A stretch of 64,000 nucleotides of DNA from Rhodococcus koreensis (lineage in GTDB: Bacteria > Actinomycetota > Actinomycetes > Mycobacteriales > Mycobacteriaceae), in the NCBI RefSeq assembly GCF_900105905.1, contig NZ_FNSV01000002.1:1-64000 (forward strand), in the 5' to 3' direction. The notes under the pieces are model-generated. The model saw nothing but the letters and a program-made list of their open reading frames with translations. It searched no databases and was not told the origin of the DNA. The position numbers and the translations under genes were made by a program. Of this stretch, positions 29,894-32,800 are shown in pieces (the first letter of the stretch is position 1; each line of letters starts with the position of its first letter).

Positions 29894-32800
29894 ATGACGA
29901 GTGTGAATTCGCCGCAGCCGAATAACGGCGCCGAAGATGTGAACGTTCCCGAAGGGGCCTTCCCGCTCTCCTCGGTGCAACGGAGCATGTGGTTTGCCCA
30001 ACAACTGAGCCCCACGGTCCCCAAGTTCATCGCGCAGTACATCGAGTTGCGGGGCGAGATCGACCTGGACCTGCTGAGCGATGCCGCAGTGCGGGCCGGT
30101 CAGGAGTTCCAGTCGCCGTTCCTGCGTCTGCTCGACGTCGACGGGGAGCCCTATCAGGCGGTCGATTTCACGATCGACCCGTCGATCGGGTTCCTCGACT
30201 TCCGCGGCGAGGACGAGCCGATGTCCGCCGCGCAGGCGTGGATCGACGAGGACTACGCGACACCTCTGCGGTTGACCCGGGACCGGCTCGTCGAGATGAA
30301 CGTCCTGCAGGTCGGTGAGCAGCACTACCTGTGGTACACCAGGATTCATCACGTCGCCCTCGACGGGTACAGCGGCATGACCATGGTGAACCGGATCGCG
30401 GCGCTGTACACGGCGGCGATCGAGGGCACCGAACCGGAACCGAACCGTGCGCTGGACCTGCGCGAGCTGTACGCACTCGACCAGAAGTACCGGAAGTCGA
30501 CCCGGTTCGAGAACGACCGGTTGTACTGGGCCGAACGGATAGTCGGCATCGAGCACGGGTCGACGCTCGCCACCCACGACGCCCCCGCGGCGGCGAAGAG
30601 CAGGCTCGAGAGCGCGAAGATCTCCGAATCCGCGCTGGGTTTCCTCGGCGAGTCGGATCAGCGGGTCGGTGCCACGTCGGCGGCCGTCCTGCTCGCGGGG
30701 TTCGCCTGCTATCTGTCCCGCATGACGGGCAGGCGGGACGTGCTCATCAACCTGCCGGTGTCGGCGCGCACCACGGCGCCGCTGCAGCGGTCCGGCGGCA
30801 TGCTCGTGAACGTCGCGCCGCTGCGGATCACCGTCCGCCCCGAGGACACGGTGACCGAACTCGTCCAGCGGACGCAGCTCGAACTGATGGGTGCGCTGCG
30901 TCATCAGCGGTGCAGCCTCGAGGACATCCGCCGCGACGCCGGACTCGCGGGGACCGCGGAGGGTCTCGCCGGCCCGATGGTGAATGTCATGCTGTTCCAC
31001 CAGGCGTTCACGCTGGGCTCCGTCAACGGCGAGTACCACATCGTGACGTCGGGTCCGGTGGACGACTTGCTGGTCAACATCTATCAGAGCGGCGACGGCC
31101 AGACACTGCTCGATTTCCGCGGCAACCCCAACCGGTACGGCGCGGAGGAGCTGCGCGCGCACCACCGCCGGTTCGTGGAACTGGTCGAAGAATTCGTCAC
31201 CGCGGAGCCGCAGGCGCGGACCGCCGACATCCATGCCGAGAGCGCGCGCCTCGGCGCGCGGTTCCTCGAACGGGAGTCCCAGCTCGAGTTCTGGAAGCGG
31301 GAGCTGGCGGGCCTGCCCGAGGTGACGGCGCTGCCGCTGGACCGGCCGCGCCCGGCTGAGCGGGCCGGCGCGGGCGAGGTCGTCGGGTTCGCCGTCGACG
31401 CCGGCGTGCAGCACCGCGCGGCACTGCTGGCCGAGGAGGCGGGCACCGGGATCTTCACCGCGCTGCATGCCGCGCTGGCCGTGTTGCTGGGCCGGCTGGG
31501 TGACACCGACGACGTCGTGGTCGGAACACCGATCGTCGGGCGCGACACGACCGACTCCGAAGACCCGGAAGCCGGAGCGTTCTTCAACAAGGCGGTCCTG
31601 CGGTCGCAGGTGGACGGGGCGTCGTCGTTCGTCGACCACCTGAGCCGGGTCCGGGACGCCGACCGGGCCGCGTTCTCGCACGCGGCGCTGCCGTTCGACG
31701 ATCTCGTCGCTGCCGTGGTGGCCGAACCCGACCCGTCGCACACGCCGCTGTTCCAGGTGATGCTCGAGTTCACCGACGGCGGCCATCCGCACGACTCCTC
31801 GGGGACCGTGACGGTCAGCCCGATCCAGCGTGAACACCGAGCCCTGGGGCTGGATCTCGTGTTCTCCCTCACCGAATCGGAGACCGGCGGCATCAACGGC
31901 CGGCTGCGGTACGCGAAGGACGTGTGGGACCGCGACAGCGCGGAGGCAATCGCCGCCCGCTTCGTCCGCATACTGCAGTCGGTGACGGCGGATCCGGCCG
32001 CGCCGATCGGGGACGTCGACCTCCTCGAACCGGCCGAGTACGCGGAACTCGCACCGGTGCGCGACGAGCCCGCGGTGGAGCCCCGCACGCTTCCCGCACT
32101 GCTCGCCGGTGCCGTCGCGGCGGGCGGCGACGGGGACGCCCTCGTCTACGAGGGGCGCACCCTGACCTACGCCGAACTCGACGAGCAGTCGAACCGACTC
32201 GCCCGCATGCTGATCGGGCACGGGGTGGGGCCGGGTTCGGTTGTGGCGCTGGCGATCGCGCGCTCGATCGAATCGGTGCTGGCCACCTGGGCGGTCGCGA
32301 AGTCCGGGGCCGCGTTCGTCCCGGTCGACCCGAACTACCCGGCCGACCGCATCGAGCACATGCTCACCGATTCCGGTGCGGTCGTCGGTCTCACCGCCAT
32401 AGCGCACCGCTCGTCGCTGCCGGCGATCACGCCGTGGCTGGTGATGGACGACGCGTCGTTCGGGCGGGAGACGGAACAGCACGCCGCCGGCGCGATCACC
32501 GACGCCGACCGCCTCCGGCCGTTGCGGACGGCGGATCCGGCCTACCTGATCTACACGTCCGGCTCCACCGGTACTCCCAAGGGTGTGGTCGTCACCCATG
32601 TCGGTCTGGCGAACTTCGCCGAGGACGAGCGGCAGCGGTTCGACGTCACCGCCGAGTCGCGCACCCTGCACTTCTCCTCCCCGAGTTTCGACGCGTCGAT
32701 CCTGGAACTGCTTCTCGCCGTGGGCGCAGGCGCCACGATGGTGGTGGCACCGTCGACGGTGTACGGCGGTACCGAACTCGCCGACCTGTTGCGCCGCGAA

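What the first reader, a model, noticed from the sequence alone, without database searches (positions are those of the whole stretch)
29972..32010. Starter C domain followed by an orphan C-terminal C lobe
NRPS2 opens with a full EntF-like starter C ([10 protein letters not shown]). Before the first A domain it then has a second C-lobe, from the [13 protein letters not shown] linker to the C-domain end, lacking any HHxxxDG half. This looks like insertion of a starter C in place of the N-lobe of an ancestral LCL domain. The leftover lobe may serve as a docking platform for the A domain or for the acyl donor.
Basis: partly seen in the sequence, partly recalled or inferred. Interest (0 to 1): 0.65.

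Follow-up and report, generated by a model that had tools for sequence, protein, structure and literature searches.

The report
Conserved orphan half-domain in peptide synthetases
Many Rhodococcus-family peptide-making enzymes begin with a complete bond-forming domain followed by a spare, non-catalytic half of a second one, which probably serves as the rigid seat of the next domain; this natural design bears on how such enzymes can be rebuilt.

Summary
NRPS2 (29894-56677, +) starts with a full starter-type condensation domain (C1, 29954-31219), then a C-terminal condensation lobe without its N-lobe (hC, 31271-32050), then an adenylation domain. It is no local accident: the 80 relatives kept of 137 found carry it, and 70 of 201 sampled genomes of the family match its junction (20 of 20 checked). 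In 396 genomes drawn from the phylum only the window's own ran through the junction. Starter C domains with hC form one clade with one nested loss. hC derives from an LCL elongation domain, evolves fast but under purifying selection (dN/dS about 0.31 against 0.13-0.14), and in most copies, not the window's, has lost the two loops that clamp a C-lobe to an N-lobe. The modelled hC-A pair superposes on solved C-A platforms (641-647 residues, 2.3-2.9 A on the closest). Best reading: hC is a non-catalytic seat for the A domain. The nested loss keeps the same kind of A without hC, so hC is not strictly required. New variant of a known kind (truncated C domains).

The parts
29894..56677 (+). NRPS2 gene, 8927 aa, starter C - half C - A - T ... 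T - TE
   Evidence: open frame and motif scan; TE at its end
29954..31219 (+). C1: complete starter-type (EntF/MxcG-like) condensation domain
   Evidence: PF00668 model 3-440, E 1e-54; NCBIfam MxcG/EntF N-terminal regions cover residues 22-450
30347..30367 (+). HHVALDG catalytic motif of C1
   Evidence: motif scan, residues 152-158
31235..31303 (+). modelled helix that joins C1 to the half domain (model residues 433-455)
   Evidence: AlphaFold2 secondary structure
31271..32050 (+). hC: orphan C-terminal lobe of an LCL condensation domain, no HHxxxDG
   Evidence: PF00668 model 191-455, E 2.8e-40; alignment to full C domains; profile
31538..31591 (+). floor-loop equivalent (C5) of hC: length kept in this copy, with GMFVNT of the elongation domains changed to GAFFNK; largely deleted in most relatives
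31784..31849 (+). latch equivalent of hC: roughly full length in this copy, largely deleted in most relatives
32117..33270 (+). A1 core (the adenylation domain that hC precedes)
   Evidence: AMP-binding from residue 742; modelled with hC; superposition on C-A structures

Best explanation
hC is a non-catalytic remnant that works as a structural seat. A starter C domain became fused, at the boundary between the two lobes, to the acceptor-side lobe (C-lobe) of an elongation LCL domain that stayed with its own adenylation domain. hC keeps the native C-lobe/A interface and linker, so that A1 sits on the same rigid platform as in an ordinary C-A-T module, while all condensation chemistry (acylation of the first aminoacyl-T) is done by C1, tethered through one helix to the front of the platform. 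Shown here: presence, boundaries, conservation, one clade of hC+ starter domains, LCL kinship, loss of the lobe-lobe clamp loops in most copies. Modelled: the platform geometry of hC-A. Inferred: that the seat is why hC is kept, how the fusion arose, and that C1 reaches the T domain from a displaced position.
For: (1) Conservation: 80 of the 80 loci kept (of 137 found) have C1-hC: 77 with A in view, 3 cut by contig ends. 70 of 201 genomes of the family match the junction profile; of these I fetched 20, chosen mostly for weaker or lone matches, and 20 of 20 have the insert (C1-A distance 222-292 aa). (2) Selection: median dN/dS of hC 0.31 over 39 non-independent pairs, below 1 in all 39, and 0.19-0.25 among the window and its orthologues, against medians of 0.13 (C1) and 0.14 (A1). 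(3) What decays: in 48 non-redundant hC rows the floor loop (LCL positions 277-288) is at least half deleted in 38 and the latch (358-373) in 33; 4 or more positions are missing in 0 of 41 LCL domains for either loop. The review PMC11546977 (passages) describes these two loops as those that reach from the C- to the N-subdomain. Core positions (W195, L199, LPxDRxRP, R297, R421, R424, G438/D439) stay. (4) The hC-A model (pTM 0.83, pLDDT 87.2) superposes over 643-647 residues at 2.3-2.6 A on Txo1/Txo2 C-A (6ozv, 6oyf, 6p1j) and 641 at 2.9 A on SrfA-C (2vsq); others among the listed C-A structures give up to 4.0 A over 614-652 residues. Foldseek TM is 0.88-0.90 on the query for the Txo structures. 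(5) In Nocardia hC and A1 together resemble the C2 C-lobe and A2 of the same protein (hC 58-81%, A 66-77% in L060, L068, L089, L093; hC 27-45% in the non-Nocardia loci), so lobe and A moved as a block. (6) An independent A-hC-A'-hC-A-T array in the same genome also keeps C-lobes in front of A domains.
Against: L013 and L133 lie inside the hC+ clade of starter C domains, lack hC (gap 29 and 26 aa) and still have an A1 nearest, after each other, to those of their hC+ sisters: the same kind of A can do without the seat. hC is the fastest-evolving part of the block (mean identity 37% over 77 rows, against 51% for 71 C2 C-lobes and 60% for 77 C1 C-lobes), and in some genera it is so divergent that the C model barely sees it (11-38 bits in several rows; no call in L088). 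The window's own copy has both clamp loops at near-normal length, as do 4 others of 48, so the loss of loops is a trend of the family, not a property of this copy.
Confidence: 0.7

Rival explanations
1. Neutral relic held by a ratchet: after the fusion the protein came to tolerate hC and cannot easily lose it in one exact step; hC stays folded only because a misfolded insert would harm C1 and A1, without contributing to function.
For: Fast evolution and relaxed constraint of hC, loop deletions, strong divergence in some genera, at least one clean loss (L013/L133).
Against: Present in all 80 loci kept and all 20 checked ones, with only one nested loss on the tree; dN/dS below 1 in 39 of 39 pairs; conserved core.
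Confidence: 0.22
2. hC has gained a new task, for example as a spacer that moves C1 away from A1 so that an external acyl carrier or acyl-CoA can reach the donor side, or as a docking site for such a partner.
For: hC occurs behind one clade of starter C domains at protein N-termini, and the clamp loops are free to change.
Against: No position that is conserved in hC but not in LCL stands out; the best cases (L443, H323) are also common in LCL. The A-T spacing is unchanged. Upstream, where only NRPS-type domains were sought, stand-alone AMP-binding ORFs occur in 6 of 80 loci, plus a cut fragment in L091; of four scanned, two (L055, L079) look amino-acid-activating and two (L042, L045) acyl-CoA-ligase-like. 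Other possible partner genes were not surveyed.
Confidence: 0.07
3. The second segment is part of the normal starter C fold or an annotation artefact.
For: None found.
Against: C1 alone covers model 3-440; 74 related starter domains (EntF included) reach A after 22-39 aa and one after 64 aa; hC aligns and groups with LCL C-lobes.
Confidence: 0.01

Closest known systems
Truncated C* domains (ThdA of thermoactinoamide; fmq cluster of fungi)
   Same: An incomplete, presumably inactive condensation domain. In ThdA it is N-terminal, in the starter module, and its authors suggest that it may influence the A domain, citing C-terminal subdomains at the A interface (PMC7253712, passages). In the fmq cluster it is named in a figure legend (PMC10212144, passage; its place in the protein was not read).
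   Different: In ThdA C* stands alone before A. Here a complete starter C precedes the half domain in one polypeptide, and the arrangement is a conserved trait of a bacterial family.
HcpA 'Co' (A4-Co-A2) of an Aspergillus orthologue
   Same: An incomplete C domain between other domains, read as a degenerated module (PMC4041764, passages); resembles the A-hC-A array of L003.
   Different: A 177-aa segment with limited homology, fungal, and after an A domain rather than after a starter C.
EntF/MxcG-type starter C-A modules
   Same: C1 class; direct relatives of C1 in the same genomes.
   Different: They join A through about 30 aa without hC.
XUC exchange units (C-Asub - A - PCP - C-Dsub) used in NRPS engineering
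   Same: The cut between the two C sub-domains, with the acceptor lobe kept with its A (PMC11546977, passage).
   Different: Meant to rebuild a complete C domain; here the acceptor lobe is left without any N-lobe. The exact XUC cut site was not compared.

Membership tests
Condensation domain PF00668 (for C1) | full-length two-lobe model with HHxxxDG | tested here: met
   model 3-440/456, E 1e-54, HHVALDG
Starter C domain (Rausch et al. 2007, PMC1894796, passages) | first domain of the assembly-line protein | tested here: met
   residues 21-442 of NRPS2; the upstream NRPS1 has its own TE and an RbpA gene on the other strand lies between
Starter C domain | groups with EntF/starter domains rather than LCL | tested here: inconclusive
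   NCBIfam MxcG and EntF N-termini match C1 strongly and EntF scores as a distant C1 homologue (209 bits); no tree with all C subtypes was made
Starter C domain | acylates the first aminoacyl-T with a beta-hydroxy or aryl acid | not testable with these tools
   needs enzymology
Complete condensation domain (for hC) | N-lobe with HHxxxDG | tested here: not met
   PF00668 model 191-455 only; no motif between C1 and A in 88 of 88 proteins
LCL-derived C-lobe (for hC) | LPxDxxRP after the conserved Trp, reported as absent in DCL (PMC1894796, passage), and tree position | tested here: met
   LPLDRPRP in the window; positions 208-215 mostly kept in 48 hC rows; hC groups on the LCL side, away from the two NRPS2 C domains (41747, 49619) that follow HHLVVDG segments read here as epimerization domains
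Truncated C* of loading modules | incomplete C directly in front of the first A | tested here: met
Truncated C* of loading modules | no complete C before it (protein starts with C*) | tested here: not met
   a full C1 precedes it in 80 of 80 loci
C-A platform | C-lobe docked on A_core as in solved C-A didomains | tested here: met
   on a predicted model only: 641-647 residues at 2.3-2.9 A to 6p1j, 6oyf, 6ozv, 2vsq

The most novel reading that the evidence does not exclude
The orphan lobe is a dedicated, selected non-catalytic domain: nature cut a condensation domain at the lobe boundary and kept the acceptor lobe as an A-domain partner, so that the C-lobe-A unit, not the whole C domain, is the true exchangeable module of these assembly lines, with the starter C riding in front at a displaced position that gives it a new reach to external acyl donors.
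Probability: 0.25. Interest if true: 0.78.

Novelty: new variant of a known kind. Interest (0 to 1): 0.58.

Why it matters
[quoted passage not shown] Here is a natural and widely conserved case in which the catalytic half of a C domain is gone and the A-facing half stays, with natural hC-free relatives (L013/L133) as built-in controls. It also means that such starts should be annotated as one loading module rather than as C-C-A or as a broken domain.

Tried and rejected
Rejected: chance match or frame artefact (same frame, no stop, E 2.8e-40). Rejected: part of the starter fold. Rejected for the window: NRPS2's C1 takes the peptide of NRPS1; NRPS1 ends in its own TE and an RbpA gene on the other strand lies between them. 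In three other loci (L043, L046, L076) an upstream NRPS frame ending in A-T stops 79-135 bases before the hC+ frame opens, so a trans role of C1 there is open.

My own earlier reading, that hC was re-supplied repeatedly from elongation modules, did not hold. The 95-row C-lobe tree (of 171 rows, thinned at 75% identity within each type) needed 5 changes, and an AU test on 86 rows (9 left out: two L003 lobes, the rows of the two NRPS2 domains 41747 and 49619 and their two C2 relatives, three long-branch hC) rejected one hC clade (p 0.001; the first attempt did not finish). But without the four Nocardia loci the 41 hC rows were one side of a branch (79 rows, support 84, not starred). So only an exchange in Nocardia stands, direction unknown. 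I also expected the hC-free relatives L013/L133 to have changed their A domain; they had not. In the A1 tree the hC label needed 6 changes, of which starred branches force 2, so A1 alone does not show one clade.

Led nowhere: the whole C1-hC-A model (pTM 0.70) matched C-A chains as a whole only at about 18-20 A rmsd, so the place of C1 is unknown; upstream AMP-binding ORFs are present in few loci and of mixed kind; the A-T spacing is not longer. Not tested: whether the humimycin-type NRPSs named in PMC5550956 (passages) carry hC. The 57 of 137 relatives that one search did not keep were not seen. Of the matches only 70 loci were examined (8 with hC, the window's own stretch among them, 62 without); some of its genomes may be the same species as loci. 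Of the 70 genomes, 20 were checked for architecture; for the others I read the match ends by eye. Literature searches; none of the listings or passages read describes a starter C followed by a half C, which says nothing about papers outside that library.

Full report
What is there. NRPS2 is one open frame of 8927 aa (29894-56677, +). Pfam's condensation model matches it twice before the first A domain: 29954-31219 over model positions 3-440, and 31271-32050 over positions 191-455. The first carries HHVALDG. The second begins at the Trp helix after the N-lobe and has no HHxxxDG. It aligns with the C-lobes of the elongation domains of the window, the C5 to C7 regions included (motif names recalled). 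Its LPLDRPRP segment is an LCL mark according to PMC1894796 (passage).

It is common. The same genome has three more C1-hC-A starts (C3:3246235-3248250, C3:3219347-3221377, C3:6881566-6883497). A scan of genome contigs with an alignment of the four copies gave 137 relatives, of which the best 80 were kept: Rhodococcus and near genera, Prescottella, Antrihabitans, Nocardia, Speluncibacter. All 80 have C1 followed by the extra segment near a frame's start. 77 show the A domain, with a C1-to-A distance of 222-299 aa, and three contigs end before A but show the half domain; in L088 the segment is there but was not called by the HMM. The 75 starter C relatives examined without it, EntF included, reach A after 22-39 aa, one after 64 aa. 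With a profile of the C1-hC junction 70 of 201 genomes of the family matched, in 11 of 31 genera. I fetched 20 of these 70, mostly weaker or lone matches, and 20 of 20 have the insert (222-292 aa). In 396 genomes drawn from the phylum only the window's own genome matched through the junction; four other genomes of the family matched, none to the profile's end.

History. A tree of 102 C1-type domains (of 162 rows, thinned at 80% identity), rooted on EntF, puts all 37 hC+ rows in one clade (SH-aLRT 100) together with two hC-free rows, L013 and L133, that sit beside hC+ sisters. One gain and one loss is the simplest account. The two hC-free proteins keep an A1 nearest, after each other, to those of the same hC+ sisters, so the loss looks like a removal of hC, not a change of A. 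The half lobe groups with LCL C-lobes. In a thinned C-lobe tree it is not one clade if Nocardia is included (AU p 0.001 after leaving out nine rows), but is one side of a branch without Nocardia (support 84, not starred). In Nocardia hC and A1 are close to the C2 C-lobe and A2 of the same protein (58-81% and 66-77% in four loci, against 27-45% for hC in the non-Nocardia loci), which looks like exchange of a C-lobe-A block, direction unknown. All trees are 'quick' ones.

Constraint. hC is the fastest part: mean pairwise identity 37% (77 rows), against 51% for C2 C-lobes (71) and 60% for C1 (77). Yet its median dN/dS is 0.31 (39 non-independent close pairs, all below 1), 0.19-0.25 among the window and its orthologues, compared with 0.13-0.14 for C1 and A1. 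What is lost is specific: positions 277-288 and 358-373 of the LCL reference are at least half deleted in 38 and 33 of 48 non-redundant hC rows; 0 of 41 LCL rows lack four or more positions in either. I identify these with the floor loop and the latch. That the two loops cross from the C- to the N-subdomain is from PMC11546977 (passages); the assignment to these columns rests on my recall of C-domain structures. Five of 48 rows, the window's among them, keep both loops at near length. In some genera hC is of normal length but so divergent that the model scores it at 11-38 bits.

Structure. AlphaFold2 with an alignment of 63 sequences gives a confident fold for C1, hC and A1 but an uncertain overall arrangement (pLDDT 87.7, pTM 0.70); C1 and hC are joined by a helix. 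hC-A alone is modelled with pTM 0.83. It superposes on solved C-A didomains from the C-lobe onward: 646 residues at 2.3 A on 6p1j, 647 at 2.6 A on 6ozv, 643 at 2.5 A on 6oyf, 641 at 2.9 A on 2vsq, and up to 4.0 A on other listed ones. This is what a retained platform predicts, with the caveat that such didomains may be in the training set. PMC13142362 (passage) also places the A-domain contact of a C domain on its C-terminal lobe.

Mechanism. The most likely reading is that C1 does the chemistry and hC is the seat of A1. Selection for the seat explains why the body of hC persists while its clamp loops go. The natural loss shows that the seat can be given up, so it is an advantage or a constraint rather than a strict need. 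A neutral ratchet is the main rival.

Context. NRPS1 upstream is a separate line: it ends in a TE, and an RbpA gene on the other strand lies between. Its real N-terminus probably lies on another contig that overlaps the start of the window contig (2161 of 2199 bases identical), with a starter C without hC (L010, gap 39 aa). Truncated C domains are known (PMC7253712, PMC10212144, PMC4041764; passages), so the kind is known. The combination with a complete starter C, conserved across a family, I found in none of the listings or passages read (searches).

Noticed in passing
L003 (window's genome, C3:2791000-2802500, minus strand): An NRPS with C - A (all five core motifs sought, no T) - half C - decayed A (of the motifs sought only A7 left) - half C - A - T. 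The 791-aa middle part is present without stops in 6 of 41 searched genomes, own genome included (71-88% identity in the other five). Its starter C is outside the hC+ clade, so it is an independent case.
   Followed up: partly
window 1-2199 and C3 from about 9044802: The first 2.2 kb of the window contig match a stretch of contig C3 (2161 of 2199 bases; the ten differences listed lie in the first 15 bases), so NRPS1 is cut at the contig start and an assembly overlap or duplication exists.
   Followed up: partly
window 28838-29446: RbpA-family gene on the minus strand between two giant NRPS genes, each with its own thioesterase.
   Followed up: partly
window 32117-33270 (A1) and relatives: A1 specificity residues (positions recalled) of hC+ modules are rather uniform: DALVVGAVV in 16 of 63 aligned rows and close variants in many others, which suggests that the same first residue is acylated in many products.
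   Followed up: no
L055, L058, L064, L079: An AMP-binding ORF overlaps the start of the hC+ NRPS frame; in the two scanned with NCBIfam (L055, L079) it passes the amino-acid adenylation cut-off.
   Followed up: partly
window 56796-58016: Secretory lipase (PF03583) directly downstream of the end of NRPS2.
   Followed up: no
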